NCBI GenBank assembly: GCA_017428925.1
Contig: JAFRPY010000077.1
Span: 22,509-86,508, forward strand
Direction of reading: 5' to 3'
Length of the DNA: 64,000 nucleotides
Origin: Prevotella sp.
GTDB taxonomy: Bacteria > Bacteroidota > Bacteroidia > Bacteroidales > Bacteroidaceae
Shown here: positions 1-58,447 of the stretch, in pieces
Numbering within the stretch: the first letter of the stretch is position 1
Layout of the letters: every line of letters starts with the position of its first letter
Program-made: the position numbers and the translations under genes
Notes under the pieces: generated by a model
The model's database searches: none
What the model saw: only the letters and a program-made list of their open reading frames with translations
Told to the model about the DNA's origin: nothing

Positions 1-536
1 ACGCCTTTAGTAATCTGCTCTTCCTCGTCGGAAAACTTGAACAGGAAGATGTTGATGAATTTTTTCAGGTTCTGGGTGTATTCGCCGTAGGATGAGCTTT
101 TGTAGAGGAAGTCCTTGTAGTTGTAGTCGTCGAAGTTGACTTCGTGGCGCAGCACGCCCGGCTCGCCCATGGTTTTCCCATCTTCGTCGGCAGTGGCCAT
201 CTTGAAGGTGATGTTCATGCCGTTACGCTTATAGAGTGCGTTCACGCTGTCGATAATCAGGCTCAGCCGTGCCTGACTGGGATATTGCAGCGCATCATTC
301 TTGTCTTTGTAGAGCACATGGAAGACGACGGGCAACTCGTATTCGTAGTCGTCGCTGATGGAAGTTGCCGTCTCGTTGGTAGTGCTACTGCTGGTAGATA
401 CTTCGTCGTTGTTGCCGCAAGCGGTTAGGATGAGGAAAAGAAAGGCCCACCCCCACCCCTCCCAAAGGGAGGGGAGATTTAACTGCCAAAGGGAGGGGAG
501 ATTTCGTTTGCGAATGATTGGATTTTTTCTGTTCAT
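1..536 (-). CDS. Zinc-dependent metalloproteinase lipoprotein, N-terminal part
   Basis: Only the first ~178 codons are present; the gene runs off the left edge. Reading the minus strand from an ATG at 536 gives MNRKNPIIRKRN, then two LPSLW-type stretches, then a short hydrophobic core ending in the lipobox-like ILTACG (Cys about residue 40), then a Ser/Thr-rich linker and ELPVVFHVLYKDKND. This resembles Bacteroidales metzincin-type lipoproteins (pappalysin-like, of the BF0631 kind), but the HExxH site would lie outside the window, so the family call is tentative. The protein would be exported and lipid-anchored. Oddity: the n-region of the signal peptide is encoded by two copies of the GC-rich interspersed repeat, so the signal peptide is a chimera. 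An alternative is that translation starts further in, but no other in-frame ATG precedes the hydrophobic core. Confidence 0.6.
   Translation of the reverse strand, partial: MNRKNPIIRKRNLPSLWQLNLPSLWEGWGWAFLFLILTACGNNDEVSTSSSTTNETATSISDDYEYELPVVFHVLYKDKNDALQYPSQARLSLIIDSVNALYKRNGMNITFKMATADEDGKTMGEPGVLRHEVNFDDYNYKDFLYKSSSYGEYTQNLKKFINIFLFKFSDEEEQITKG
445..504. repeat. GC-rich palindromic repeat inside a signal peptide
   Basis: Contains the hairpin CCCTCCCAAAGGGAGGGG and a second half copy (CCAAAGGGAGGGGAG) spaced by AGATTTAACTG. The flanking CCCACCCCCA matches the flanks of the other copies in this window. It lies in the 5' coding part of the metalloprotease lipoprotein gene. Confidence 0.75.
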
Positions 537-12479: not shown

Positions 12480-12546
12480 TTCACTGAAGATCCAGCGCCT
12501 GTTCTACAATGAGGACGGCACCATCCAAAAGGTTGTGAACGAGTAA
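12480..12546 (+). pseudogene. Duplicated 3' end of the GH43 gene
   Basis: 67 bp that match 11513-11579 (the last 22 codons and stop of the GH43 gene) at 63 positions. The four differences (Ile ATT/ATC, Gln CAG/CAA, Lys AAA/AAG, Val GTG/GTT) are all third-position and silent. The rest of the GH43 gene is absent here. With the upstream copy it brackets the higBA module. Confidence 0.9.
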
Positions 12547-33036: not shown

Positions 33037-33978
33037 ATGAGGAAAATATTGTTTCTCTTTGTCATGTGGCTGGCGGTTCAGACCGCCAGCGCACAGATTG
33101 CTGCCAAGTATCAGGTTCATCGGGGTGACACCTATGCCTCGATAGCCGAGAAATTCGGCATGACAGAGGGCGAGCTCCGCCGGAAAAATTCGGGAAAGCG
33201 TCACCTGTATGCCGGCATGACAATCAATGTCGTCGATTATTATAATGGCCGTCCTGCGCGAATTTCCAGCCCTCGCGAAAGCTACGATGACAGGGTAGAC
33301 ATGGATAATTATGACAGCGCTGAGTCCAGTTACGGCAGTTATTCCAATTCGTTCCTTGACGATCCGGATTTCCAGGAGGCACAGCGTCTGGAAAAGATGC
33401 ACAAGTTCAAGGATGCCGCCAAACTCTATTCCAAGGTCATCGACCGCAATCCTTCGGCAGTATTGTTCTTCACGCGTGGCGTGTGCTATTACCAGAACAA
33501 GAAATGGAAAAAAGCCATTTCCGACTTTGAGTATGCGCTGAATGCGAGAGATGCCAACGCTACACTCAGAAGTGAGTGCGAACGCTATCTTGACAGTGCC
33601 TACGAACAGCGGGCCATTTCACAGGAGCGCTCGGCTAATACCTGGGCTGGTATTCTGACGGGCGTCGTGGCTGTGGGTGCGGTGGCCGATGCGCTCTCCC
33701 ACGACAAAAAAGACCATGGCAAGGGGAATCGCGACGGACATCAGGCCAATGGTGGACAGCAGCGTGGCGGCGACCGTCAGCAGGCCGGTGGGCAGCAGCG
33801 TGGCGGCGACCGTCAGCAGGCCGGTGGACAACAACGCGGAGGCGACCGTCAGCAGGCTGGAGGACAGCAACGCGGCGGCAACAACCGCCAGCAGACCAGT
33901 GGCCAGCAACGAGGTGGTAATCGCCCGCAGGGCCAGCGCGGTAACGATGAGCGCAGAGGTCAGCGGAACAGGGACTGA
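33037..33978 (+). CDS. LysM protein with TPR-like middle and Gly/Gln/Arg repeat tail
   Basis: 313 aa. Signal peptide (to about residue 20), LysM domain binding peptidoglycan (YQVHRGDTYASIAEKFGMTE, residues 25-65), an acidic linker, a TPR-like region (about 108-175, FKDAAKLYSKVIDRNPSAVL), a short hydrophobic stretch (AGILTGVVAVGAVADAL), then a disordered basic tail. The tail holds the 12-residue unit GGQQRGGDRQQA repeated three times plus degenerate copies, encoded by 36-bp tandem repeats at about 33750-33930 that could vary in number. Probably envelope-associated. A strong terminator follows. Confidence 0.82.
   Translation: MRKILFLFVMWLAVQTASAQIAAKYQVHRGDTYASIAEKFGMTEGELRRKNSGKRHLYAGMTINVVDYYNGRPARISSPRESYDDRVDMDNYDSAESSYGSYSNSFLDDPDFQEAQRLEKMHKFKDAAKLYSKVIDRNPSAVLFFTRGVCYYQNKKWKKAISDFEYALNARDANATLRSECERYLDSAYEQRAISQERSANTWAGILTGVVAVGAVADALSHDKKDHGKGNRDGHQANGGQQRGGDRQQAGGQQRGGDRQQAGGQQRGGDRQQAGGQQRGGNNRQQTSGQQRGGNRPQGQRGNDERRGQRNRD
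33750..33930 (+). repeat. 36-bp intragenic tandem repeats
   Basis: Units beginning GGTGGACAGCAGCGTGGCGG encode GGQQRGGDRQQA; three near-perfect and two degenerate units. Unit length is a multiple of three, so copy-number change keeps the frame. Confidence 0.8.
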
Positions 33979-37693: not shown

Positions 37694-37747
37694 GAAATGG
37701 AGAAAATGAGAGAATGAGAAATGGAGAAAATGAGAAATGGGGAGTTT
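37684..37747. repeat. 8-bp tandem array spanning a stop and the next start
   Basis: Eight units related to GAGAAATG/GAGAAAAT/GAGAGAAT. The array contains the transferase stop codon (37691-37693) and both candidate start codons of the acyltransferase (37721 and 37730). Confidence 0.85.
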
Positions 37748-38875
37748 TTGAGCCGCACTGAATCGGCGACGCTGCGCGGCATCGCCATTCTCGGCATTAT
37801 TCTTCACAACTACTGTCATTTCCTGAATTTTGCCGTTAAGGAGAACGAGTATAAATTCGATGCAGCGCGCCCCATGCAGTTTCTCGACCGCCTTGTATCC
37901 CTCGACAGCGACCTGTTCATCCATTTCTTTTCCTTCTTTGGACACTATGGTGTCCCCATCTTCCTTTTCATCAGCGGATATGGATTGGTGAAGAAATATG
38001 AAGCCTACCCCCACCCCCTCCCCAAGGGAGGGGAGTCTGTCAGCGCAAAAGAAGCCTTCCCTTCGGGGAGGTTTGGAGGGGCTTTCATTAAATACCATTT
38101 CCTCAAGCTGTTCCGCCTGATGATTATCGGATATCTGGTGTTCATCGGTGTTTATTTGCTTCGCCATTCCGATGGTGCCCAGGTATATTCGTGGGACCAT
38201 GTGCTCACGCAGCTCACCATGACCATCAACTTCCTCTATTTCGATCCCGACCACATCATCAAGCCCGGTCCCTATTGGTTTTTCGGGTTGATGCTTCAGC
38301 TGTATGTGCTCTACATTCTGGTCATTCACCGTTGGCGGAACCATTGGCTGCTGTTGGCATTGGCGTTGGGTTCAGTCGTGCTGGAAGGATGCTTTGTCGA
38401 TAGTCAGGATTGGCTCAACTACGTGCGCTACAATTTCGTCGGCGGACTGTTGCCTTTCTGTATGGGTGTGTGGGTAGCGAGGAAAGAGGAGAGAGGAGAG
38501 AGGAGCGAGGAGAGTAATCCCCTGGCTCTTACCGCTTCACTTTTGGTTTCCGCTCTTTTCGTCCTTTTCGGCAGTCTGAACTTTTTTACATGGCTGTTCG
38601 TTCCCGTTTTTGTGGTAACGGGTGCCATTGCCACAATAAAATTAATGTCTCATCTCCGTAACTCCCTCCCTTTGGGAGGGTTAGGGGTGGGCCCCTGGTT
38701 CGGCAGCATATCCGCGGCCCTCTTTGTGATGCATCCCGTGATGCGTGAACTGATTATCGGCCATTACCGCAAGGTCGACATTTATGGTGGCATCGCCATC
38801 TACCTGCTCTCGTGCGTGGCCCTTGCCATGCTACTAAAATGGATTTTGCAATTTATCCCCAAACCCAAATTATAG
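37721..38875 (+). CDS. Acyltransferase family 3 membrane protein, with repeat-encoded inserts
   Basis: 384 aa. Acyltransferase_3/OatA-type integral membrane enzyme: SRTESATLRGIAILGIILHN with the His, then multiple membrane segments, VPIFLFISGYGLV and LFVMHPVMREL near the end. It would O-acetylate (or otherwise acylate) a surface polysaccharide or lipid. Three stretches do not look like the family: residues about 95-123 (PHPLPKGGESVSAKEAF), 249-262 (RKEERGERSEESN) and 311-322 (NSLPLGGLGVGP). The first and third are translated GC-rich repeat elements and the second a purine tandem repeat; all fall in loops between membrane segments. Start is 37721 or 37730; both lie in the tandem array. Confidence 0.83.
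   Translation: MEKMRNGEFLSRTESATLRGIAILGIILHNYCHFLNFAVKENEYKFDAARPMQFLDRLVSLDSDLFIHFFSFFGHYGVPIFLFISGYGLVKKYEAYPHPLPKGGESVSAKEAFPSGRFGGAFIKYHFLKLFRLMIIGYLVFIGVYLLRHSDGAQVYSWDHVLTQLTMTINFLYFDPDHIIKPGPYWFFGLMLQLYVLYILVIHRWRNHWLLLALALGSVVLEGCFVDSQDWLNYVRYNFVGGLLPFCMGVWVARKEERGERSEESNPLALTASLLVSALFVLFGSLNFFTWLFVPVFVVTGAIATIKLMSHLRNSLPLGGLGVGPWFGSISAALFVMHPVMRELIIGHYRKVDIYGGIAIYLLSCVALAMLLKWILQFIPKPKL
38003..38086. repeat. GC-rich double-hairpin element, orientation A, in frame
   Basis: CCCTCCCCAAGGGAGGGG, then spacer GTCAGCGCAAAAGAAG, then CCTTCCCTTCGGGGAGG and TTTGGAGGGGC. Its reverse complement is found at 39640-39715 in the next gene. Read without a stop in the acyltransferase. Confidence 0.85.
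38661..38694. repeat. GC-rich palindromic repeat, in frame
   Basis: CTCCCTCCCTTTGGGAGGG followed by TTAGGGGTGGGCCCC, inside the first acyltransferase gene. Confidence 0.75.
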
Positions 38876-38879
38876 CCCG

Positions 38880-38922
38880 CTCTCCCAACTCCCTCCCTAT
38901 AGGGAGGGCAGGGGTGGGTCTC
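38880..38922. repeat. GC-rich palindromic repeat between acyltransferase genes
   Basis: CTCCCTCCCTATAGGGAGGG followed by CAGGGGTGGG; fills the gap between the first acyltransferase stop and the second start. Confidence 0.75.
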
Positions 38923-38928
38923 CTTTTT

Positions 38929-40077
38929 ATGAACTGGAACGACCTCAGCCGATACCGCGCACCACTGATGGGTTTTGCAATGCTCATCGTCATGCTTTTC
39001 CATGTACCCCTGTCGCGCAACGATTTGTTCTACGGACTGATGCGTTGCGGCAACAACGGAGTCGACATGTTCCTTTTCCTCAGTGGAATCGGACTGTGGT
39101 ATTCGTGGACGAAGAAAATCCCCCTTAGGGGGAATGATTCTTCACTCTTCACTCTTCACTCTTCACTTATTCTAAATTTCTACTACCGCCGCTTCCTGCG
39201 CCTATATCCCGCATGGCTCATCATTGCCAGTCTTTATTATATCCCTCAGTACTGGCCCAATGGTGGCGGCTATAGCCCCAATCTGTTCCATCTCGTGGCC
39301 AATATTTTGGTGGGGTGGAGTTTTTGGCGCATCGACGACCTGACGTTTTGGTTCGTTCCGGCCATCATCGTGCTCTATCTTATTGCCCCCTTCTATATGA
39401 TGTTCATCCAGCGCAACCGCGTATGGCGCTGGCTTCCGTTAGTAATGATTTTGTGGTACCTGTTGGTGCGCGACTGGCCTCCGCTATGGGGTGCCGTGGG
39501 CCATGTGGAAATCTTCTGGAGCCGCATCCCCGTCTTCCTGCTGGGCATTAATGCTGGAGAGTGGGTAAAAACCCACCCCCTAACCCCCTCAGGGGAAACC
39601 CACCCCCTAACCCCCTCCCGAAGGGATGGGGAAGGCCCATCCAAACCTTCCCAAAGAGAAGGCTTCTTTTGCGCTGACAGGCTCCCCTCCCTTGGGGAGG
39701 GGTTGGGGGTGGGCCTTATTTTCCTCCTTTCCATCTGGTACTGCGTTTATATTGAGGGCCATCGCCACGGTGCCTTTCCCCCGGCTGCCGAGCGCATGGT
39801 ATATATTCCCTTGGCCGTCAGCACGATGTTTTTGATGTGTCAGGTCTTCCGGCATACACCCTCATGGCTGCTCCGTGCTTTCACCTTCGTGGGAGGCATT
39901 TCGCTTGAAATCTATCTCGTACATGTCCAGTTTGTGCTGGTCTATATCAAGTCCTACCGACTGGGCTATTGGCCCACCTTCCTGCTGCTACTCGCCATCA
40001 GCATTCCCCTGGCATGGATGCTCAGTAGGCTTGTTGGATGGCTTGTCAATAAGTTCCTGCCAAGAGGCGAAAAGTAA
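38929..40077 (+). CDS. Second acyltransferase family 3 protein, with large repeat-encoded insert
   Basis: 382 aa from the ATG at 38929. Family features: NWNDLSRYRAPLMGFAMLIV with LFHVPLSRND, NNGVDMFLFLSGIGLW, YYRRFLRLYPAWLI, and ISLEIYLVHVQFVL near the end. It probably acylates a surface glycan like its neighbour. Two foreign stretches occur: residues about 63-80 (LRGNDSSLFTLHSSLILN) from a 7-bp tandem repeat, and about 214-262 (KTHPLTPSGETHPLTP through SLGEGLGVG) from GC-rich elements at 39569-39715. Both lie in loops. The stop codon TAA is also the start of a 22-bp palindromic tandem array. The upstream frame from 38812 is an open extension through the repeat and is rejected. Confidence 0.82.
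   Translation: MNWNDLSRYRAPLMGFAMLIVMLFHVPLSRNDLFYGLMRCGNNGVDMFLFLSGIGLWYSWTKKIPLRGNDSSLFTLHSSLILNFYYRRFLRLYPAWLIIASLYYIPQYWPNGGGYSPNLFHLVANILVGWSFWRIDDLTFWFVPAIIVLYLIAPFYMMFIQRNRVWRWLPLVMILWYLLVRDWPPLWGAVGHVEIFWSRIPVFLLGINAGEWVKTHPLTPSGETHPLTPSRRDGEGPSKPSQREGFFCADRLPSLGEGLGVGLIFLLSIWYCVYIEGHRHGAFPPAAERMVYIPLAVSTMFLMCQVFRHTPSWLLRAFTFVGGISLEIYLVHVQFVLVYIKSYRLGYWPTFLLLLAISIPLAWMLSRLVGWLVNKFLPRGEK
39117..39180. repeat. 7-bp tandem array inside an acyltransferase gene
   Basis: CCCCCTTAGGGGG is followed by repeated TCTTCAC units (TTCTTCACTCTTCACTCTTC and onward). The reverse complement (GTGAAGA units) is found intergenically at 45906-45940. Confidence 0.75.
39569..39715. repeat. Composite GC-rich element, orientation B, in frame
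   Basis: Two CACCCCCTAACCCCCTC units, then ACCTTCCCAAAGAGAAGG, the spacer CTTCTTTTGCGCTGACAG and CTCCCCTCCCTTGGGGAGGG with TTGGGGGTGGGCC. The right half is the reverse complement of the element at 38003-38086. Open in the acyltransferase frame for its full 147 bp (49 codons). Confidence 0.85.
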
Positions 40078-40163
40078 TTTAGACTAAATTACTTACCAAT
40101 TTAGACTAAATTACTTTGCAATTTAGACTAAATTACTTTGCAATTTAGACTAAATTACTTTTT
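40076..40163. repeat. Four tandem 22-bp palindromic units
   Basis: Units start at 40076, 40098, 40120 and 40142. Each contains the perfect 15-bp palindrome AATTTAGACTAAATT followed by ACTTTGC or a variant. The first unit begins inside the stop codon of the acyltransferase gene. Confidence 0.9.
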
Positions 40164-40449
40164 CGTTCTGGATGATTTGTTTTTCCGCTGATGGACAAAC
40201 ATCCAAAATAATCTCACAAAAACAGCGAATGCGAATAACTCCCCTCCCCTTGGGAGGGGTAGGGGTGGGCCTTAAACGGAAAGATTTGTGGCAGATTTTT
40301 GAAGATTTTTGTTTAAAAAAGTGTAGGGGTGCTGAGTAGCTACTTTGATGTTTTAAAATGTTAAGGAAAACAAAATTCCCCGTAAATTATAATATGTTAA
40401 CAAGAATAAGATTTTTATTATAATTTAAAGAAATTTTATGAGAATGGCG
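40164..40449. other. Gene-free repeat-rich spacer
   Basis: No supported frame. It holds CACAAAAACAGCGAATGCG at 40215, a GC-rich palindrome at 40239-40272 and AAGATTTGTGGCAGATTTTT with GAAGATTTTTG at 40281-40311, the same order as at 14455-14618. Confidence 0.6.
40239..40272. repeat. GC-rich palindromic repeat
   Basis: CTCCCCTCCCCTTGGGAGGGG followed by TAGGGGTGGGCC; intergenic copy. Confidence 0.75.
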
Positions 40450-40458
40450 TATCTTTGC
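40450..40458 (+). promoter_or_regulatory. -7 box for the fimbrillin operon
   Basis: TATCTTTGC; leader of about 115 nt to the ATG at 40580. Confidence 0.6.
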
Positions 40459-40579
40459 AATTAGTATTATGCAGTGATATTATCAACTTAGAATAAACTC
40501 GATCTTAGCGGAGATGATGAATATTTTACTCCGTTGCGACTATACGTTTAATGTAAATAATAATAAACGCTATATAGTA

Positions 40580-40825
40580 ATGAAGAAAAAACGATTAGAA
40601 CCCTATTTGCAACCCGCCGTCGACACGATACAGATGCACGGTGGGGAGACGGTGCTGGATGCAGTTTCCGGCAGGACAAGCATCACAGACCTTGACACAG
40701 GACAGGACCTTGGCACCGACGCTACCGGCGGCGCCAAGGAAGGCTTCACATTCTGGCAGGACGACGACGAATTCCTGTCGTCAATAGAAAACACAACCCT
40801 CAGACTATCAAGTAATGAAGAATAA
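40580..40825 (+). CDS. Small acidic protein upstream of a fimbrillin-like gene
   Basis: 81 aa from MKKKRLEPYLQPAVDTIQMH. No signal peptide. The start (KKxxxxxYxxPxxxxIxMxG) is like many short Bacteroidetes proteins of unknown role that precede surface lipoprotein genes. The remainder is Asp/Gly/Thr-rich and acidic. It overlaps the fimbrillin start by 11 bp, so the two are coupled. It could be a regulator, an export-related peptide or a leader. The longer frame from 40514 has an ordinary AT-rich 5' UTR sequence and is less likely. Confidence 0.6.
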   Translation: MKKKRLEPYLQPAVDTIQMHGGETVLDAVSGRTSITDLDTGQDLGTDATGGAKEGFTFWQDDDEFLSSIENTTLRLSSNEE

Positions 40826-43244
40826 CATGAAAACGACAAAAATCATAATGGCTGCCGCTATCACGGCTGTGCTCGCGGCATGCTCCGTGGAGAGCGACTT
40901 ACAGTCGCAACAGCAAAAACGTGGCAACTACGGCGAGGAAATTCCCGTCACCGCCAACCGCGAAGACGCCGGAACGCGCGCCGGACTCAATCCATCGAGT
41001 CCGAAGAAGAGCATCTGGCAGGAGGGTGACCAGCTCACCATCTGGACCGGCGAGGGATTCACTGAGGATAACATGTCGACAGGAAGTTTCACCCTGAAAA
41101 ACGGGGCTGGAACCAATGCCGCCATCTTCTGGGGACGACTGAAATACACCGATTTCCCCGACGATGACACCCCGCTCACCGCCGTGGTCGACAATGGCGC
41201 CGACATGGTGGATTGCTCGTCGGGAACCGAGGCCGTAGTTGATTTCTCCACACAGCAGTATGCCACAGCCGAGTCGGTGCTGCATTACGATGTGCTCTAC
41301 GGAACGGCCACCTATGGCAACCGCGATTTTCAGTTCAGTCACACCATGAGTTTCGTGCGCTGGACCATATCGGTCAGCGGCATCACCGAGGCAACTACAT
41401 GTTCCATCGTGCTGAGTGCCGGCGGACTGTGCAATACGGCCACGCTCGATCTCGCCACGGGTACGCTGACGGCTGGCAACGAGGGTAACATCACGCTGAC
41501 CGACGTCAGTTTGGATGCCACGGGAAAGGCAGTGCTCTATGTAGCCCTGTTCCCCGGAGCCATTACCACAGGCATGAAGGCCGTGGTGATAATGGCCGAC
41601 GGCAAAGTCACCGACGGAAATCTTGGCGACGGAAATTCTTTCACGCTGAGACCGAACACGCTCAACACGGCGGCCAACAATTTCAGTGAGCCGGGAACAT
41701 TGAGTTTCACCTTTACCGCAACTTCACCTGATGCGGTTGCCTATACCGCGGATGAGACCGACAACTACAGTGTCACCAGCTACGGGCAGTATACGACTGG
41801 CGGCGTAGAAAAGACGATACCCTTGGCATGGGAGATTGAAAAATATGAATATTCCGACGACGACGGTGCAACATGGACCGACAATGGCACGACGAAGCCG
41901 GCATGGCTCACCGCGCTGAGCACCGAGAGCGGCAACGGCGGCACCACTGCTGAAACGGGCACGGCCACCGTAGACGCCGATTCGTATATCACCGACTTCA
42001 AGGCCGAGCGCGACAACGCGCTGAAGAATGCCACGGCCCAGACGGACTACGACCTTTCACAGGGCGGTGAGACGGCCAACTGCTACGTCATCTCAGCTCC
42101 GGGAACCTATAAAATTCCGCTGATTTATGGTAATGCACGAAAGGCTGACGGCACGCTGAATACGAGTAGTTTTCAAACGGCCAATACAGGTACAAGAATC
42201 CTCTCGAATTTTATCAACTACAAGGGCACGGCTATTACCGATATGTTGCTGAGTAGCAGCGGCGACACGCCTACCACTGCTGAATTGGTGTGGAGCGACG
42301 CCGGTGCAAACATCGTCAGTTCGCCCGCCATCAGCGGTGATTTCCTGACCTTCGAAATTAAAAAAGATGACTTGCAGCAGGGCAATGCCGTGGTGGCCGT
42401 AAAGGATGCCGACGGCTTGGTGATGTGGAGTTGGCACCTGTGGTTCGCCCCGGCATCGGTGCTGAACACTATTGCCGTGACAAACTCCTCAGGCAATGTT
42501 TACGACTTCAGCGAGGAACCTCTGGGTATGAAATATACAGAGTGGAACCGCTCCACCTATACGCAGAACCGTAAGGTTCGCGTCACTCTCCGACAAACTG
42601 TTGTGCCGTCGAACACAACAACTTTCGAAATCACGCAGACTCCCGGTTCGGAAAAGAGCCCTGCCTCCACGCTGTATCAGTGGGGTCGAAAGGATGCCTT
42701 CCCCGGTGTTGACGATGCCAGCGTAAGCGGCAGTTTCAGCAAAGTTTCTGGAAGGAAATCTTATGATGTGGCCATCCAAAATCCAGGTGTTTTCTATTAT
42801 AATTCAGGATCTACTGGCTGGTGTACTATAGGATATTTCAATGCATGGTCGGTGGATAAAACTACTAAATCGCCAGCTGACAACACCGTAGTGAAATCAA
42901 TTTACGACCCCAGTCCTGCAGGCTTCCATCTGCCTGAAAAGAATGCCTTTACTATTTTTTCTATATCCAATGTAGATGGCAGTTTTGACAAAGGATGGAA
43001 CTTCTGGACCAACACCAATAAGACGGAATCCATTTACTTTCCAGCTGTGGGTCTTCGTCCTTTTAATTCAGGTACGTTGTCATCATCGTCGGTGGGAAGT
43101 ATTGGCTACTGTTGGACGGCAATCGCCAGCTCCAATACCAGTGGCAGTGGTTGGACATTGTTATTTAGGAACAATAATGTGAATCCTGGAATGGATAATT
43201 TTTTGAGCTCTAATGGTGCATCTGTTCGTCCTGTGAAGGACTAA
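40815..43244 (+). CDS. Fimbrillin-like (Mfa-like) surface lipoprotein with FISUMP-type end
   Basis: 809 aa. Signal peptide and lipobox LAAC (Cys about residue 22). The first ~290 residues follow the fimbrillin/Mfa_like_1 pattern: TRAGLNPSSPKKSIWQEGDQ, paired beta strands and a lipid-anchored precursor. The middle is Thr/Asn/Asp-rich. The last ~200 residues (YDPSPAGFHLP through NGASVRPVKD) match the FISUMP-type carbohydrate-associated or adhesin domain. Likely a surface adhesin or minor-fimbria tip protein. Starts with two in-frame ATGs (40815 and 40827). Very large for a fimbrillin, suggesting a fusion. Confidence 0.8.
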   Translation: MKNNMKTTKIIMAAAITAVLAACSVESDLQSQQQKRGNYGEEIPVTANREDAGTRAGLNPSSPKKSIWQEGDQLTIWTGEGFTEDNMSTGSFTLKNGAGTNAAIFWGRLKYTDFPDDDTPLTAVVDNGADMVDCSSGTEAVVDFSTQQYATAESVLHYDVLYGTATYGNRDFQFSHTMSFVRWTISVSGITEATTCSIVLSAGGLCNTATLDLATGTLTAGNEGNITLTDVSLDATGKAVLYVALFPGAITTGMKAVVIMADGKVTDGNLGDGNSFTLRPNTLNTAANNFSEPGTLSFTFTATSPDAVAYTADETDNYSVTSYGQYTTGGVEKTIPLAWEIEKYEYSDDDGATWTDNGTTKPAWLTALSTESGNGGTTAETGTATVDADSYITDFKAERDNALKNATAQTDYDLSQGGETANCYVISAPGTYKIPLIYGNARKADGTLNTSSFQTANTGTRILSNFINYKGTAITDMLLSSSGDTPTTAELVWSDAGANIVSSPAISGDFLTFEIKKDDLQQGNAVVAVKDADGLVMWSWHLWFAPASVLNTIAVTNSSGNVYDFSEEPLGMKYTEWNRSTYTQNRKVRVTLRQTVVPSNTTTFEITQTPGSEKSPASTLYQWGRKDAFPGVDDASVSGSFSKVSGRKSYDVAIQNPGVFYYNSGSTGWCTIGYFNAWSVDKTTKSPADNTVVKSIYDPSPAGFHLPEKNAFTIFSISNVDGSFDKGWNFWTNTNKTESIYFPAVGLRPFNSGTLSSSSVGSIGYCWTAIASSNTSGSGWTLLFRNNNVNPGMDNFLSSNGASVRPVKD

Positions 43245-43254
43245 TTAAAAGCGC

Positions 43255-43560
43255 ATGAGAAAAGTATTTTTAACTGTCGTATCCGTCCTGATGGTTGCTG
43301 CCGCTGTGGCGCAGCCGGGTCCGCGCCGTGCTTCGGGCATCGACTCGCTGGACAGCGGAAGCAACCTGGGCGGCGACAGCGAACCGCCGGCCACCGCCAT
43401 TCGGCGCGTGGCCGGTGATAGCAGTCTTGGTCCGGAGCGCGAGTCATGCACGCGCTTCACCACGGGCGGCTCCGTAGTGAGCCGTCCCCGCCGCGGCCAG
43501 GTCGTCATTGTCCGCCGCCGCACCGCCAATGGCTACGTGGTGGAAAAAAGAATTTTTTAG
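43255..43560 (+). CDS. Small secreted Arg/Gly/Pro-rich protein
   Basis: 101 aa. Signal peptide (MRKVFLTVVSVLMVAAAVAQ), then a disordered Arg/Ser/Gly/Pro region (GPRRASGIDSLDSGSNLGGD) and VIVRRRTANGYVVEKRIF at the end. It begins 10 bp after the fimbrillin-like gene and is probably cotranscribed. GC content is markedly higher than in its surroundings. No function recognised. Confidence 0.6.
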   Translation: MRKVFLTVVSVLMVAAAVAQPGPRRASGIDSLDSGSNLGGDSEPPATAIRRVAGDSSLGPERESCTRFTTGGSVVSRPRRGQVVIVRRRTANGYVVEKRIF

Positions 43561-43632
43561 CCGTTAGTAGTAAAAAGGGCATAAAAACGTCGATTTTTCT
43601 TCAAAAGCCTTGTTTGTTACAAAACTTTTCAC

Positions 43633-43641
43633 TATCTTTGC
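43633..43641 (+). promoter_or_regulatory. -7 box for the unknown two-gene module
   Basis: TATCTTTGC; predicted start near 43648, about 20 nt before the ATG at 43670. Confidence 0.6.
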
Positions 43642-43669
43642 GACGTTTTTAATATCGATATTTAACAGA

Positions 43670-43951
43670 ATGGCTACCGAAAGAATCGGGTACGAAAGCC
43701 CGCTGAAGCACATCTATGAAGCTAAGTGCGGAATTCTTAGCGATTTGGAAAGAGACCTGGGCAAGAGTACTGTTCGCCAGTTAGAGGCAATGGGCTTCAT
43801 CCTGAATGCCCCCAGCCAGCATGGCGACACATGGAAAATTTCCGACCGGGCCAAACGCCTCGGTTATGTAAGTTTCAGATCTTATTCTCGTAAAGAGAGG
43901 TTTAAAGACTTCTGTCGTTACAAACTCCCTCGACTGTTGTTTGGAGCATGA
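43670..43951 (+). CDS. Small basic protein of unknown function, first of a coupled pair
   Basis: 93 aa from MATERIGYESPLKHIYEAKC. No signal peptide. Predicted helical with a basic C-terminal half (SFRSYSRKERFKDFCRYKLP). DLERDLGKSTVRQLEAMGFI could form an HTH-like unit, but I do not recognise a family. The longer frame from 43610 starts upstream of the promoter. Its stop overlaps the start of the next gene (ATGA), so the two proteins are probably made together. Confidence 0.6.
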   Translation: MATERIGYESPLKHIYEAKCGILSDLERDLGKSTVRQLEAMGFILNAPSQHGDTWKISDRAKRLGYVSFRSYSRKERFKDFCRYKLPRLLFGA

Positions 43952-44946
43952 GATCTTATTTCTACGCATTATGGATTCCTCAATATAAGGAAGGGGAACC
44001 CCATGCAGGAAAATTAGAATTAGAAGAGGCGGCACTTCGTGACAGAGACGAAGATCCAGAATTATGGGTTAGTGGCAAGATAGAAAAAGATACGCTGCTA
44101 ATACGGCTTTCCTATACCATAGACAAGAATCCTCAAAGGACGTTAACTTTCCAAAAGACAGAATCCTCCAATGAGGGATTCATCATTTATAGGTTAACTC
44201 TTGACGATAATGAAAATGACTTTCTTTGCAATAGGCTGCGCACAACGATGCCAAAGGCAATTTACCACTATCTGAAAGAGTTTTTTCACGTGCACCAATT
44301 TCACAGTAGCGGTGATGATTCCTTACTGGAAGCATATTTCTCTGAAAATCCAATCGACCTTAATGACGCCAGCCATCTGAGAAAGATTCTGAAAGTGTAT
44401 CTCCAATCATACATATACAAGTATGAGGGATGTGTTTCGCTCTGTCGTGACAGATTGTATGATATAACAAAGAATGTTAGCGACGGTGTCAGAATTAGTG
44501 CTTCTCATGATGAGTTGAAAATGTTGATTGATAACAATCAGATAGTTCTTGACGGAGAATCTATGTATTGTGACTTTTTGATTAACAGTTTCCCTGATTT
44601 AGTTGACCAGAACCAATTACATCGTATCTATTCCCAAAGAAATGAATTGGCACGCTATGATGACAGGCTACAACGGTTAGAGTCTGCTCTGACATCACAG
44701 AAGAGTCTAAAACTTGGATGGATTGGTTTCTTTGCGAGTATGATTGGTGCCCTCGTTGGTGTTGTAGTTTCACTGCTTCTTGGTCAGTGCAGCAGTTCTG
44801 AGCTTAAAGAAGGAATTTCAACAATCAGGAAGGATATTCAGTTAATTGAGGCACATGACTCATTATCCAGTCAGGATATACAACATGTCAAGCAGAATCA
44901 GGACAGCATCCTGAAACTGCTGAACAAACCGACTCCCAAGAAGTAA
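43948..44946 (+). CDS. Membrane-anchored protein of unknown function, second of the pair
   Basis: 332 aa. A cytosolic N-terminal part of about 240 residues (MRSYFYALWIPQYKEGEPHA, LHRIYSQRNELARYDDRLQR), a single membrane segment near 252-275 (LGWIGFFASMIGALVGVVVSL), and a short helical C-terminal part (EGISTIRKDIQLIEAHDSLS). No catalytic motif is visible. AT-richer than the polysaccharide genes after it. The layout (small soluble protein coupled to a membrane protein, own promoter, atypical composition) is compatible with a defence, toxin-antitoxin or signalling pair, but nothing in the sequence proves it. Confidence 0.6.
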   Translation: MRSYFYALWIPQYKEGEPHAGKLELEEAALRDRDEDPELWVSGKIEKDTLLIRLSYTIDKNPQRTLTFQKTESSNEGFIIYRLTLDDNENDFLCNRLRTTMPKAIYHYLKEFFHVHQFHSSGDDSLLEAYFSENPIDLNDASHLRKILKVYLQSYIYKYEGCVSLCRDRLYDITKNVSDGVRISASHDELKMLIDNNQIVLDGESMYCDFLINSFPDLVDQNQLHRIYSQRNELARYDDRLQRLESALTSQKSLKLGWIGFFASMIGALVGVVVSLLLGQCSSSELKEGISTIRKDIQLIEAHDSLSSQDIQHVKQNQDSILKLLNKPTPKK

Positions 44947-45011
44947 AAAACAAATACGTTATTTCGCATTCTTTGAATAAGTTGTAACTTTAAATAACTT
45001 ACTTTGCCACC

Positions 45012-45908
45012 ATGAAAGAAATATTACGGCTGATACGGCCAAAGCAATGGCTGAAGAATGTGTTCGTGCTGGTGCCGATGTTCTTTGGCGGCGCACTTAC
45101 CGACGGGGCTACGGTGTATGCTTCGGTGGTGACGTTTTTCGCATTCTGTTTCATGGCTTCGGCGGTGTATTGCTTCAACGACATTGTTGACGTGGATGAC
45201 GACCGCCGACATCCCGTAAAGTGCAGCCGTCCGATTGCCTCGGGGACCGTCTCGCTGAAGACGGCCTATGGACTGATGGCGCTGATGGTGGTGATGGCGT
45301 TGGTAACCCCCCTCCTGCTCCCCCGAGGGGGAGTGATAGAGGCCTCCCCTCGGGGAGGTTTGGTGGGGGTTCTCTTGTTCTATTTCGTGCTGAATCTTGC
45401 CTACTGCGCGTGGCTGAAGCGGTTTGCCATCGTCGATGTGTGCGTCGTAGCCTTTGGATTTGTGCTGAGGTTGTTGGCAGGAGGTTTTGCCACGGGAATT
45501 GCGTTGAGTAAGTGGATTGTGATGATGACGTTCCTGCTGACGCTTTTCCTTTCGTTTGCCAAGCGGCGCGACGATGTTGTCCGTATGGAGGCCACGGGTG
45601 AGGCTCCGCGCAAGAATACTATACGCTATAACCTGACGTTCATCAACCAGGCCATCACCATCACGGCTTCGGTGACACTGGTGTGCTACATCATGTACAC
45701 GATTTCGCCCGAAGTGGTGGCGCGCGTGCATACGGACTATCTGTATCTGACTACGGCATACGTACTGTTGGGACTGCTGCGCTATATCCAAATAACGGTG
45801 GTTGACAAGAAGAGCGGCGACCCGACGAAGATGATGCTGCAAGACAGGTTTACGCAAATTGTGGTGGTGCTTTGGGCACTGACCTTCCTGTTTATCATTT
45901 ACTTTTAA
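45012..45908 (+). CDS. UbiA-family prenyltransferase, decaprenyl-phosphate phosphoribosyltransferase-like
   Basis: 298 aa, about eight membrane segments. LRLIRPKQWLKNVFVLVPMF and the Asp-rich NDIVDVDDDRRHPVKCSRPI are the prenyl-diphosphate-binding motif of this UbiA branch. Relatives transfer phosphoribose to polyprenyl phosphate. Residues 99-120 (TPLLLPRGGVIEASPRGGLV and on) are a translated 66-bp GC-rich element in a loop after the third segment; the same element occurs in the next gene. The ATG is about where transcription should start (TTACTTTGC just upstream), so the mRNA may be leaderless. Confidence 0.82.
   Translation: MKEILRLIRPKQWLKNVFVLVPMFFGGALTDGATVYASVVTFFAFCFMASAVYCFNDIVDVDDDRRHPVKCSRPIASGTVSLKTAYGLMALMVVMALVTPLLLPRGGVIEASPRGGLVGVLLFYFVLNLAYCAWLKRFAIVDVCVVAFGFVLRLLAGGFATGIALSKWIVMMTFLLTLFLSFAKRRDDVVRMEATGEAPRKNTIRYNLTFINQAITITASVTLVCYIMYTISPEVVARVHTDYLYLTTAYVLLGLLRYIQITVVDKKSGDPTKMMLQDRFTQIVVVLWALTFLFIIYF
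45306..45371 (+). repeat. 66-bp GC-rich double hairpin, in frame in the UbiA gene
   Basis: CTCCCCCGAGGGGGAG and CCTCCCCTCGGGGAGG palindromes, flanked by ACCCCCCTCC and GGTGGGGGTT. 62 of 66 bases are identical to the copy at 46325-46390, in the same reading frame (22 codons). Confidence 0.92.
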
Positions 45909-45940
45909 AGTGAAGAGTGAAAAGTGAAGAGTGAAGAATT
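45906..45940. repeat. 7-bp tandem array (GTGAAGA)
   Basis: Four to five GTGAAGA/GTGAAAA units directly after the UbiA stop codon. Confidence 0.75.
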
Positions 45941-45964
45941 TTTGAAAAATGAAACATAGATAAT

Positions 45965-46597
45965 ATGACGATACATGCTTTCGACTTCGACGGAACCCTT
46001 ACCAAGCGCGACACGCTGATAGCGTTTATCCGCTATGTGAAGGGTAACAAGGAGTTCATTATCGGATTTCTGAAGCATCTGCACCTGCTCGTTATGATGA
46101 AGGTGGGACTGATGCCTAACTGGAAGACCAAGCGCATCATCTTCCAGTATTTCTTTGGCGGAATGCCGATAGAGACGTTCAATCAGTATTGCGAAAAGTT
46201 TGCCAAGGAAAAGGCGTCGCTGCTCCGTAAGAAAGGAATGGCAGCCGTGAACAAGGCGGTGATGGATGGTGACCAGGTGGTCATCATCTCGGCTTCGGTG
46301 GAGAACTGGGTGAAGCCGTTTTTTACCCCCCTCCTGCTCCCCCGAGGGGGAGAGACAGAAGCCTCCCCTCGGGGAGGTATGGTGGGGGTTTCAATCATCG
46401 GCACTCAGATTCAGGTAGTAGACGGTAAGCTGACGGGATATTTCCTCACAAAAAACTGCTATGGGGAAGAAAAGGTGCGCCGCCTGCTGGAGCAATATCC
46501 TGACCGCAGGGATTATAAACTGGTGGCTTATGGTGATAGCCGTGGGGATGTTCCTCTGCTCGACTTTGCCGACGAGGGGCATTATAGGGAGTTCTGA
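45965..46597 (+). CDS. HAD-superfamily phosphatase (PSPase-like) with repeat-encoded insert
   Basis: 210 aa, cytosolic. HAD motif I DFDGTLTKRD (residues 6-15), motif II ISAS (109-112), motif III Lys in NCYGEEKV, motif IV GDSRGDVPLL. The substrate is unknown; in UbiA neighbourhoods such phosphatases often act on polyprenyl-phosphate sugar intermediates (context inference). Residues 121-142 (TPLLLPRGGETEASPRGGMV and on) are a translated GC-rich element placed between motif II and motif III, so the fold must tolerate an extra loop next to the core. Confidence 0.85.
   Translation: MTIHAFDFDGTLTKRDTLIAFIRYVKGNKEFIIGFLKHLHLLVMMKVGLMPNWKTKRIIFQYFFGGMPIETFNQYCEKFAKEKASLLRKKGMAAVNKAVMDGDQVVIISASVENWVKPFFTPLLLPRGGETEASPRGGMVGVSIIGTQIQVVDGKLTGYFLTKNCYGEEKVRRLLEQYPDRRDYKLVAYGDSRGDVPLLDFADEGHYREF
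46325..46390 (+). repeat. 66-bp GC-rich double hairpin, in frame in the HAD gene
   Basis: Same two palindromes, length, orientation and frame as 45306-45371; four base differences, three of which change an amino acid in the spacer or end. Confidence 0.92.
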
Positions 46598-46603
46598 TAA
46601 AAT

Positions 46604-46636
46604 GAGACCCACCCCAGCCCTCCCTATAGGGAGGGA
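46604..46636. repeat. GC-rich palindromic repeat
   Basis: GACCCACCCCAGCCCTCCCTATAGGGAGGG; intergenic between the HAD and DUF6080 genes. Confidence 0.7.
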
Positions 46637-46653
46637 GCAAATGGTGATAATAT

Positions 46654-48105
46654 ATGATATTCTTCGGGTTATTCAAGATTAGGAAGGAGAAACGGTGGCC
46701 AGCGGCAGTGGTTGCCCTGTTCTTCTTGGCTGTCAATGCGATGATGACCGCCTGCTATGCCCATCTATTTATGTGGGGCGACAAAGACAGCTGGAAGGAC
46801 TTCATGAAGTATTTCTCGGTTTCCGGCTTCGACCCGATCACCTATTCCGTGATGACGGAGTGGTCGGCGGGCTATAATGTGTATCGCCATCCGTTGCTGG
46901 CTTTTTTCGTCTGGCCGTTTTCGCAGCTCAATCAGGGAATACTTGCGCTGACAGGACTCAATTTGGTGCAAGTGATTGTGGCGTTGCTGCTCGTGATGGC
47001 GGCAGTCTATACTTTTGTGTTCCTCTATCGGATAGCACATGAGCTGATAGGATTGGCGCGGAAGGATGCCCTTCTGTTATCGGCCTATTGCTTTTCTTTC
47101 GGCTATGTGATGCTCTCGTTTGCCGTTCCCGACCATTTCGGCATTTCGATGCTATTGCTGGTGATGGCGCTCTATATCTCGGGAAAATGTATTCAGAAAG
47201 GCCGCCAGTTGAGTATTGTACAGACGGTGCTACTCTTTGTCTTCACGGCAGGGGTGAGCCTGAACAACGGACTGAAGATTTTCATGGATGCCCTATTTGT
47301 TAACGGCCGTCGGTTCTTTCGTCCGAAATACTTGTTGCTGGCCGTCATTTTGCCTGCTGCGCTGATGTGGGGATTTGCCCGATGGGAATATCACACTTTC
47401 GTCTGGCCCAAGGAAATGGAACGCAAGGAATTGGCAAAAAGCGCCAACGAACGACAGCGGAATCGGGTGATAGCGGCTTTCCGTGACACTACCCAGTTGA
47501 AGGATACGGCTGAGATAAGGAAGGGTTATGAGCGCATTCTTGCCCATCAAGACAGCATGCGCGCGGCCCGAAAGGCAAAGCGTGCGGTGAATCGTCATTC
47601 GGGAAAGCCGATGATGGAGGGAGAATTTATGCGTTGGACCGATGTCACCACTCCGCGGTGGTCGTCGCTGGTGGAGAATGTCTTTGGCGAGAGTATACAG
47701 TTTCACGAGGACCATCTGTTAGGTGATACCCTGCGCTCGCGCCCGGTCATCGTGAAATACAATTACTGGCTCAACTATATTATTGAAGCCGTCATCGTGT
47801 TACTCTTCTTTGCAGGCATCTGGAAAGGTCGCCGCGAGCGGTTCCTGTGGATGGCATTGGCAGGCATGGCATTGGACTTGATTCTGCATGTTGGACTCGG
47901 TTTCGGACTAAACGAAGTTTATATCATGGCGGCCCACTGGATATTCGTGGTTCCTATTGCCACGGGGTATTTGTTGAGAGAGGAAAGAGGAAAGAGGAAA
48001 GAGGAGAGAGGAAAGAGGAGAGTGGAGAGAGTTTTGCTATTGATACTCACTGTTTTCCTGTTTTGCTGGAATTTGTCGCTATATGTGCAGTATCTGTTGT
48101 TTTAA
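46654..48105 (+). CDS. DUF6080 family membrane protein, paralogue 1
   Basis: 483 aa, about ten membrane segments. Shares with the two other copies here the N-terminal FKIRKEKRW, YRHPLL after the first loop, VENVFGESIQFHEDHLLGD in a long soluble loop, and NEVYIMAAHW near the end. The size and topology suggest a polytopic glycosyltransferase-like or polymerase-like envelope protein, but function is unknown. Between its last two membrane segments it has REERGKRKEERGKRRVER, encoded by a 7-bp purine array at 47970-48036. The paralogues have only about eight to ten residues there, so the insert is recent. Confidence 0.82.
   Translation: MIFFGLFKIRKEKRWPAAVVALFFLAVNAMMTACYAHLFMWGDKDSWKDFMKYFSVSGFDPITYSVMTEWSAGYNVYRHPLLAFFVWPFSQLNQGILALTGLNLVQVIVALLLVMAAVYTFVFLYRIAHELIGLARKDALLLSAYCFSFGYVMLSFAVPDHFGISMLLLVMALYISGKCIQKGRQLSIVQTVLLFVFTAGVSLNNGLKIFMDALFVNGRRFFRPKYLLLAVILPAALMWGFARWEYHTFVWPKEMERKELAKSANERQRNRVIAAFRDTTQLKDTAEIRKGYERILAHQDSMRAARKAKRAVNRHSGKPMMEGEFMRWTDVTTPRWSSLVENVFGESIQFHEDHLLGDTLRSRPVIVKYNYWLNYIIEAVIVLLFFAGIWKGRRERFLWMALAGMALDLILHVGLGFGLNEVYIMAAHWIFVVPIATGYLLREERGKRKEERGKRRVERVLLLILTVFLFCWNLSLYVQYLLF
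47970..48036 (+). repeat. Purine-rich 7-bp tandem array inside a DUF6080 gene
   Basis: Repeated GAGGAAA/GAGGAGA units translated as REERGKRKEERGKRR. A related array is at 38483-38515 in the acyltransferase gene. Confidence 0.8.
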
Positions 48106-53650: not shown

Positions 53651-53682
53651 TCCCCTCCCCTCGGGAGGGGCAGGGGTGGTTT
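53651..53682. repeat. GC-rich palindromic repeat
   Basis: TCCCCTCCCCTCGGGAGGGG followed by CAGGGGTGG and TTTTTTT on the plus strand; between the flippase and the glycosyltransferase genes. Confidence 0.7.
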
Positions 53683-57319: not shown

Positions 57320-57456
57320 ATTACTTATTTTCAATCTGCCAAATCATTTTTGCTATAAAATGATTGGGAGAGCCGAATGAGTGGACGGTCGAGGGTGATT
57401 CTCCCCATCATCCGACTTGCCTGAATCCGTCATCCTGATTGCCAATCCTTATCTTT

Positions 57457-57553
57457 CGAGTTGTAATTTCAATGAAATTGGTCAGCAATTTAATTGAAAT
57501 TGCTCGGCAATTTCATTGATTTTACATTGCAATTTCATTGAAATTACAACTCG
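57457..57553. repeat. 24-bp perfect inverted repeat with inner AATTTC palindromes
   Basis: Left arm 57457-57480 (CGAGTTGTAATTTCAATGAA and on) is the exact reverse complement of 57530-57553. The 49-nt loop holds further copies of AATTTnATTGAAATT/AATTTCATTG. It lies in the 461-bp gap between the cytidylyltransferase and DUF4923 genes; I see no reading frame in the rest of that gap. Confidence 0.9.
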
Positions 57554-57756
57554 GATGATGGAGATTGGCAACTCGAATGCCGATTTCAGACAGGTCGGAC
57601 GCTAATATTATGGTGCCCACACAGGACTTGAATTTGGTAAAGTTTGAGAAAGACGCTGGTGAAACAAAGATTATTTGAAAAATATTTGGAGGTTTCATTT
57701 TTTTTTCTGTTACTTTGTAACGAATTTTTATTTACCATTATAATATCTATCGCATT

Positions 57757-58404: not shown

Positions 58405-58447
58405 CAAGCCCACCCCCAACCCCTCCCCAAGGGAGGGGCTTTTTTTG
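58405..58447 (+). repeat. GC-rich palindromic repeat doubling as terminator
   Basis: AAGCCCACCCCCAACCCCTC then CCCAAGGGAGGGGC and TTTTTTT. The only copy placed like a rho-independent terminator. AGATTTTTGCAGATTATTG follows at 58450. Confidence 0.7.

What the first reader, a model, noticed from the sequence alone, without database searches (positions are those of the whole stretch)
37981..46640. GC-rich double-hairpin elements translated in frame inside genes, in both orientations
Seen: one element (palindrome CCCTCCCCAAGGGAGGGG, spacer with TTTTGCGCTGACA, second palindrome) occurs at 38003-38086 and as its reverse complement at 39640-39715. Both are open in neighbouring acyltransferase genes and give unrelated peptides (PKGGESVSAKEAFPS versus REGFFCADRLPSLGE). 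A 66-bp relative sits in the UbiA gene (45306) and in the HAD gene (46325) with 62 of 66 bases equal, both in the same frame as 22 codons. The inserts fall in loops or between motifs. Inference: a stop-free mobile palindromic repeat that can enter genes as a protein-loop insert. Known for comparison: REP/BIME elements and Rickettsia palindromic elements. I do not recall a named Bacteroidetes counterpart.
Basis: partly seen in the sequence, partly recalled or inferred. Interest (0 to 1): 0.9.

Follow-up and report, generated by a model that had tools for sequence, protein, structure and literature searches.

The report
Mobile DNA repeat inside protein loops
A short, GC-rich, mobile palindromic DNA repeat of rumen Prevotella sits inside working genes about as often as between them, where it is most likely read in frame as a short extra protein loop, and the same loops carry different repeats in sister species.

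Summary
The window carries a dispersed REP/BIME-like family: a polypyrimidine/polypurine hairpin plus a G-run tail, single or as inverted pairs. Two patterns matched 50 + 12 times in the own genome, reversed controls 1 and 0. In 464 kb, 41 hairpin-plus-tail elements were found against 0 in five Markov controls; 21 of 41 lie in predicted genes. None of 29 UbiA, 28 HAD, 29 AT1 and 21 AT2 non-self orthologues carries the window's insert. Close sister species have different repeats, or none, in the same loops, while the host genes stay under purifying selection (omega 0.04-0.15, 13 comparisons). Frame-broken hosts were not seen: wherever genes lay close on both sides of an 'outside' copy (15 of 43 copies, 12 gene pairs), they were two different proteins. 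This argues for translation. Movement by a REP-associated tyrosine transposase is likely but indirect: a sister form of the unit forms the inverted ends of such a gene in two related genomes; the own genome's two such genes have other palindromes. 'Stop-free' is a composition effect. Intragenic REPs are known elsewhere; loop re-use is the striking feature.

The parts
38003..38087 (.). BIME-type pair of inverted units (C-tail + hairpin ... hairpin + G-tail) read in frame in acyltransferase gene AT1
38661..38693 (-). single unit in AT1 (peptide NSLPLGGLGVGP), absent from the closest orthologues; no hairpin at this place in G330
38887..38922 (-). single unit between AT1 and AT2; a diverged copy is at the same place in G330
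39117..39168 (.). short hairpin plus (TTCACTC)n-type repeat in a loop of AT2; G330 has a double REP in the same loop
39571..39716. several hairpin-like units in AT2 (about 34 extra residues); only 39684-39702 passes the rule; the right part is the reverse complement of 38003-38087
40238..40272 (-). single unit downstream of AT2, intergenic
45306..45371 (.). 66-bp BIME-B, 22 codons, in UbiA
46325..46390 (.). 66-bp BIME-B, 22 codons, in the HAD gene; 62 of 66 bases as in UbiA
46605..46637 (+). single unit between HAD and the DUF6080 gene; a diverged copy is at the same place in G330
444..474 (+). single unit, in a predicted 178-aa gene on the minus strand (gene call only)
53651..53679 (-). single unit (tail below the threshold); gene context not tested
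58406..58438 (+). single unit outside predicted genes; exact reverse complement of 39684-39714 over 31 nt
37721..38875 (+). host gene AT1, Acyl_transf_3
38929..40077 (+). host gene AT2, Acyl_transf_3 (start by eye at ATG 38929; listed from a GTG at 38812)
45012..45908 (+). host gene UbiA; best solved match of its profile is a decaprenyl-phosphate phosphoribosyltransferase
45965..46597 (+). host gene, HAD family

Best explanation
These are copies of a non-autonomous, REP/BIME-like mobile repeat of the genus of the window. One unit is a C/T-arm and G/A-arm hairpin (about ACT-CCCCTCCC-NNN-GGGAGGGG) plus a tail NN-GGGGGTGGG-YCT; two units in opposite orientation with tails outward make a BIME. Copies enter genes as well as spacers. 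Copies in genes survive only where the insert length keeps the frame, the frame met has no stop, and the place is a tolerant loop. They are then translated as a Pro/Gly/Ser-rich loop of roughly 10 to 35 residues and kept while the gene stays under purifying selection. The same loops are invaded, nested into and re-filled repeatedly. Shown: the dispersed family, its presence in genes, states without the insert and with other fillings in relatives, in-frame hosts with no frame-broken pairs seen among copies counted outside genes, and purifying selection on the window's hosts. Inferred: translation and protein tolerance (no RNA or protein data). Inferred from a sister form only: movement by a Y1 (HUH) REP-associated tyrosine transposase acting on single-stranded hairpins. 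I give that last step about 0.5.
For: Dispersed family: 50 unit-A and 12 unit-B matches in the own genome, controls 1 and 0; 41 against 0 in Markov controls. In genes: 21 of 41; 18 of the 42 pattern loci fetched; 20 of 42, 3 of 11 and 22 of 45 unit matches in the own genome, in 40 stretches of G330/G317/G340, and in 30 loci of six REP-rich genomes. Ten hosts scanned include P-type ATPase, alanine racemase, KDO transferase, SufB/D, helicases and a hybrid sensor kinase. Insert absent: 0 of 29 UbiA, 28 HAD, 29 AT1, 21 AT2 non-self orthologues; L051 (two sites), L046 and L026 have no such hairpin in G330. Turnover: five window loops (UbiA, HAD, AT1 38003, AT2 39117, AT2 39571) each have a different filling in at least one of L125-L128/G330, with one BIME nested in another in UbiA of L125/L126. 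Frame: of 43 copies counted outside genes (20 own, 23 in six genomes), 15 had same-strand genes within 150 nt on both sides; these make 12 gene pairs and in each the two genes are different protein families, not halves of one. In 9 of 10 host genes with same-strand units in the six genomes the PTPNPS frame is used. In-gene BIMEs: 10 of 12 have length 1 modulo 3, outside 1 of 5 (Fisher p 0.028). Selection: omega 0.04-0.15 in 13 comparisons. Transposase link: in L287 and L289 a tnpA gene lies between inverted repeats (72 nt, 89%; 68 nt, 90%) that contain the sister unit, which has 33, 27 and 38 copies in G038, G275, G077, several with the same subterminal sequence.
Against: The own genome's two Y1 genes (L001, L002) are flanked by other palindromes; one unit-B copy lies about 0.47 kb from L002's gene. 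The tnpA subfamily of G204/G173 was not found in the own genome, which is 85% complete. Of 42 genomes with 10 or more copies, 11 have no Y1 match. L287 and L289 look orthologous, so they count as one case. GT[AG]G at the hairpin foot is present in 0 of 41. The length test is partly built in, because a copy that breaks the frame would not be called in-gene, and 5 of its 10 agreeing BIMEs share one length (109 nt). The frame-broken check misses hosts of which one half was not called. In G330 the AT1 frame does not run through its own insert (ORF 169 aa), so broken hosts exist. No clean target site or duplication could be read at 80-87% identity. Translation was not measured.
Confidence: 0.75

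Rival explanations
1. The inserts spread mainly by local slippage, recombination or gene conversion between repeats (including the TTCACTC and GAGAGGA tandem repeats), not by a transposase.
For: The UbiA and HAD copies are 1 kb apart and 62 of 66 identical. Tandem repeats fill the same loops in sisters. Nested BIME in L125/L126. Three copies at 66-bp spacing in G077. No cognate transposase seen in the own assembly.
Against: Near-identical units occur in both orientations on many contigs; isolated sites such as L026 and L051 lack the hairpin in G330; tnpA between inverted copies of the sister unit.
Confidence: 0.2
2. The host genes are decaying pseudogenes and the inserts mark loss of function.
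For: AT1 in G330 does not read through its insert.
Against: The four window genes are open end to end, keep their Pfam domains and show omega 0.04-0.15. No frame-broken pair among the 12 gene pairs checked.
Confidence: 0.05
3. The loops are ancestral variable or low-complexity protein loops that converge on Pro/Gly-rich sequence, not insertions.
For: Loop length varies in orthologues without repeats. AT1 loops of L106 and L109 (42-45% protein identity) also carry REP-like DNA.
Against: The repeated identity is at DNA level, in different frames and both strands, and identical DNA lies outside genes.
Confidence: 0.03
4. The hairpin or G-quadruplex inserts are skipped by ribosomes or removed from the RNA, so they leave no peptide.
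For: The structures are strong in principle: 30 of 41 elements hold a canonical G4 motif.
Against: Skipping or removal would need no intact frame, yet no frame-broken gene pair was found among 12, and frame use is uneven.
Confidence: 0.03

Closest known systems
REP / BIME / REPIN elements with their TnpA_REP (RAYT) transposases
   Same: Small high-copy palindromes, single or as inverted pairs, non-autonomous; in a sister form they flank a gene matching NF047646 (REP-associated tyrosine transposase; L289, E 1e-20, 74.1 bits, below its cut-off of 80)
   Different: No GT[AG]G at the hairpin foot (0 of 41); about half of the copies are inside genes, while REPs are described as mostly intergenic (PMC3733652, section 15 read)
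Atypical REPs of Bacteroidetes TnpA_REP (subclass 2.6, perhaps 2.4) in PMC6006769 (2018)
   Same: Bacteroidetes hosts; the own tnpA genes hold NHVH and YIHQNP, which fit the motifs printed for subclass 2.6; 'atypical secondary structures ... [quoted passage not shown]
   Different: Only passages seen. The sequences of those structures were not seen, so identity is untested, and I did not assign subclasses; own proteins are longer (287-299 aa against a printed 179). For subclass 2.4 the paper reports REP insertions within tnpA_REP genes; in other genes none in the passages seen ('intragenic' occurs 0 times)
Intragenic REPs of Opitutus terrae, Thauera and Rickettsia conorii (PMC3733652, 2013)
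   Same: REP units and dimers inside ORFs encode 20-30 residues; Xanthomonas recB carries different REPs at about the same site (section 15 read)
   Different: Other sequence families (GTAG, CGTC); in that section different REPs at the same site are reported for one gene only
Rickettsia palindromic elements (RPE)
   Same: Palindromic repeats inside unrelated protein genes; RPE-1 carrying proteins expressed in vivo (as cited in PMC3733652)
   Different: Different phylum; no sequence comparison made; other RPE details are recalled

Membership tests
REP (canonical, GT[AG]G-tagged) | GT[AG]G tetranucleotide 5' of the hairpin foot | tested here: not met
   0 of 41 on either strand
REP / BIME (broad sense) | Small palindrome, many copies per genome, single and as inverted pairs | tested here: met
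   50 + 12 unit matches; BIMEs at 38003, 45306, 46325 and in other genomes
REP / BIME (broad sense) | Mostly extragenic | tested here: not met
   21 of 41 in predicted genes; 18 of 42 loci. Still enriched outside genes, as genes cover 85% of the sample
REP / BIME (broad sense) | Cognate TnpA_REP gene flanked by the repeat in the same genome | tested here: inconclusive
   Own genome: two tnpA genes, other palindromes at their ends. Sister unit: tnpA between inverted copies in G038 and G275
REP / BIME (broad sense) | Cleaved and rejoined by TnpA_REP | not testable with these tools
   needs a protein and DNA assay
Rickettsia palindromic element-like (works like) | Palindrome inserted in frame in unrelated protein genes that stay under selection | tested here: met
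   selection tested for the four window genes only
Rickettsia palindromic element (member) | Sequence homology to an RPE family | not tested
   no RPE sequence was compared

The most novel reading that the evidence does not exclude
Certain loops of Prevotella proteins are standing landing sites: whichever repeat is active in a lineage enters, nests in or replaces what is there, so that sister species carry unrelated peptides at the same place of the same functional enzyme, and genomic repeats act as a continuing source of in-frame protein insertions.
Probability: 0.4. Interest if true: 0.75.

Novelty: new variant of a known kind. Interest (0 to 1): 0.6.

Why it matters
It offers a natural series of in-frame insertions into working enzymes, with empty, filled, nested and re-filled states of the same loop in sister species. 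That makes it possible to ask how selfish repeats supply protein insertions and what a loop tolerates. It also warns annotators: the same repeat gives unrelated peptides by frame, and 31 of the 37 canonical G-quadruplex motifs in the sampled 464 kb overlap these 41 elements.

Tried and rejected
Stop-free by design: rejected. I suspected that the pyrimidine/purine arms keep all six frames open; the elements average 4.85 open frames, shuffles of the same bases 5.03, random windows 4.11, and 14 of 41 are open in all six.

Own transposases as movers: not supported; L001 and L002 have other end palindromes. The tnpA subfamily of G204 and G173 goes with high copy number in several genomes (counts beside hits), but I picked those two seeds because their genomes are repeat-rich, and G204's gene is flanked by a GTAG-type palindrome family, so I do not use it as proof. 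Among 30 fetched Y1 loci of the genus only L185 and L187 held a pyrimidine-arm hairpin within about 1.5 kb; of 20 further Y1 stretches taken from mostly repeat-rich genomes, 9 held one or more.

Y1 presence against copy number over 299 genomes (own included): weak (10 or more copies: 31 of 42 with Y1; fewer: 125 of 257; Fisher p 0.0026).

Exact target site: not resolved; relatives are too diverged. One search (gaps inside long alignments) showed little because alignments break at inserts. Frame statistics count units of one BIME or one gene as if independent. The modulo-3 test turned out to be partly built into the definition of in-gene, so I added the check for frame-broken pairs.

Loop position by structure: prediction not available; sequence search only.
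Full report
Check of the observation. All lie in open frames with the quoted peptides. A scan for polypyrimidine-arm hairpins with a G- or C-run tail gave 41 in 464 kb (the window plus 20 stretches of 20 kb of the own genome) and 0 in each of five order-2 Markov controls; without the tail rule 49 against 4,1,1,0,0. The stretches came from contigs that were known to hold matches, so the density is an upper estimate. In the whole own genome (3.56 Mb, 122 contigs, 85% complete, 5.4% contamination) two patterns with up to 3 mismatches gave 50 and 12 matches, reversed-pattern controls 1 and 0.

Anatomy. Read on the G-tail strand, a unit is about ACT, then CCCCTCCC-NNN-GGGAGGGG, then two bases, GGGGGTGGG and YCT; 32 of 41 tails hold GGTGGG. 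Two inverted units with tails outward form a BIME. A variant (BIME-B) has CCTCCCC-TC-GGGGAGG with tail TTTGGWGGGGGTT. In 30 of 41 elements a strand fits the canonical quadruplex motif, and 31 of 37 such motifs in the sample overlap the elements; no folding was tested.

Place in genes. By a home-made dicodon gene caller (coding fraction 0.85), 21 of 41 elements lie in genes and 20 outside. For the 42 own-genome pattern loci that were fetched (of 62 matches), 18 are in genes. Unit matches after removal of duplicates: own 20 of 42; 40 stretches (38 of G330, one each of G317 and G340) 3 of 11; the 30 loci fetched from six repeat-rich genomes 22 of 45. A few gene calls have low scores (L006, L007, L032). 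Ten hosts were scanned with Pfam: P-type ATPase, alanine racemase, KDO transferase, SufB/D, helicases, a hybrid sensor kinase, GH2, MFS, a regulator propeller protein. Elements are thus under-represented in genes relative to their 85% coverage, yet about half are inside them.

Insertion, not ancestral loop. In a sample of 100 genomes of the genus, the non-self orthologues found on the fetched loci (29 UbiA, 28 HAD, 29 AT1, 21 AT2) lack the window's inserts. Some have longer loops of their own, and the AT1 loops of L106 and L109 (and in part L116) hold REP-like DNA. UbiA: a BIME-B nested in a BIME-B remnant in L125 and L126, a TTTCAGG-type repeat in L127, nothing in L128. HAD: BIME-B in L126, half of it in L127, a unit-A copy in L125. 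AT1: unit A plus a TTCACTC repeat in L125, a possible remnant in L127. AT2, second loop: TTCACTC-type repeats in L125 and L127, a BIME-B in L128; first loop: a double REP in G330. The single unit at 38661 in AT1 has no hairpin in G330. Of 84 own sites, 15 had both flanks in a relative: 8 in the window (two intergenic units, 38891 and 46618, are kept there in diverged form) and 7 elsewhere. Of those 7, six have no such hairpin in G330 (L046, L026, two in L051, two in L050) and one L050 site has other elements.

Translation is inferred. Host genes are under purifying selection in all 13 pairs that could be computed of 16 (omega 0.04-0.15, dS 0.6-2.8, the larger dS near saturation, AT1 against G330 over 135 codons only; aligned insert codons included). 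These include pairs in which both species carry a UbiA or HAD insert. A frame-breaking insert would split a gene into two calls and be counted as outside, so I looked for such pairs: of the 20 own and 23 other-genome copies counted outside genes, 9 and 6 had same-strand genes within 150 nt on both sides. They make 12 gene pairs; in all 12 the two genes match different Pfam families (10 pairs, the two window pairs). Hosts of which one half was not called would be missed. Frame use is uneven: in the six genomes 9 of 10 host genes with same-strand units use one frame (PTPNPS..EG); in the own genome 17 of 20 units have the C-tail strand as coding strand (p 0.003, with some units in one gene); the PPPTPP frame is rare (2 of 30 same-strand units). 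In-gene BIMEs are 77 to 109 nt long and 10 of 12 agree modulo 3, against 1 of 5 outside (p 0.028), but this is partly built into the definition and 5 of the 10 have the same length. AT1 of G330 shows the cost: its frame does not run through its insert. 'Stop-free' needs no special explanation.

How it moves. A unit with the same layout (ACTCCCCTCTCC-NNN-GGAGAGGGG-NN-AGGGGGTGAGG-CT) has 33, 27 and 38 copies in G038, G275 and G077, 1 in G174 and none in the own genome or G330. In G038 and G275 a gene of the REP-associated tyrosine transposase family lies between inverted copies of it; the L289 protein matches NF047646 with E 1e-20, under its cut-off. The inverted repeats are 72 nt, 89% in L287 and 68 nt, 90% in L289, and several dispersed copies share their inner sequence. 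The two loci look orthologous by their flanks, so this is one case. The own genome has two such genes with other palindromes at their ends. Over 299 genomes of the genus, own included, the window-type unit is found in 121 and Y1 genes in 156, with a weak association. In a sample of 296 Bacteroidota genomes (own included, two others of the same family) the unit is in 4 of the 295 others, one copy each at 3 mismatches.

What is known. Intragenic REPs and RPEs are in print: PMC3733652 (passages and the section on genome distribution) describes REP-decorated proteins and one case, recB of Xanthomonas, with different REPs at about the same site. PMC6006769 (passages only) describes Bacteroidetes TnpA_REP with atypical flanking structures and, for subclass 2.4, REP insertions within tnpA_REP genes. 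Searches of the open PMC library (listings only) showed me no paper on this Prevotella family or its peptides; subscription journals are mostly not held. I therefore call it a new variant of a known kind. It works like an intragenic REP or RPE; it is not a canonical GT[AG]G REP (0 of 41).

Noticed in passing
39137-39168, 45908-45939; L125, L127 in AT2: (GTGAAGA/TTCACTC)n tandem repeats occur between genes and in genes (3 in, 5 out in the 464 kb sample) and fill the same loops as the palindromes.
   Followed up: partly
38479-38514 and 47973-48036: GAGGAAAGAGGAGA-type repeats with 14-bp spacing are translated in AT1 and near the C-terminus of the DUF6080 protein.
   Followed up: partly
L278:1273-2233, L027:1563-1588: A second, GTAG-tagged palindrome family (GTAGGGGCAGACCCCCGTGTCTGCCC) flanks a REP transposase gene in G204 and has a copy in the own genome.
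   Followed up: partly
L001:1078-2036, L002:1027-1103: The two own-genome REP transposase genes have their own palindromes (ATCATGGGGACGG..., GGGTCATGGGGACAGG...) next to them.
   Followed up: no
40076-40161 and 57411-57599: A 22-bp AT-rich direct repeat (AATTTAGACTAAATTACTTTGC) and a 93-nt inverted repeat with a loosely similar motif.
   Followed up: no
33715-33921: Direct repeats at 36-39 nt spacing (GGTGGACAGCAGCGTGGCGGCGACCGTCAGCAGGCC); coding state not checked.
   Followed up: no
11513-11579 and 12480-12546: Two 67-nt stretches, 94% identical, each ending in TAA, as in the 3' ends of neighbouring paralogues.
   Followed up: no
45012-46597: UbiA beside a HAD gene; the UbiA profile's best solved match is decaprenyl-phosphate phosphoribosyltransferase (8j8j, E 1.8e-51).
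   Followed up: no
L312:1368-1534 (G077 C7:13494-13656): Three copies of the sister unit in tandem with a 66-bp period.
   Followed up: no
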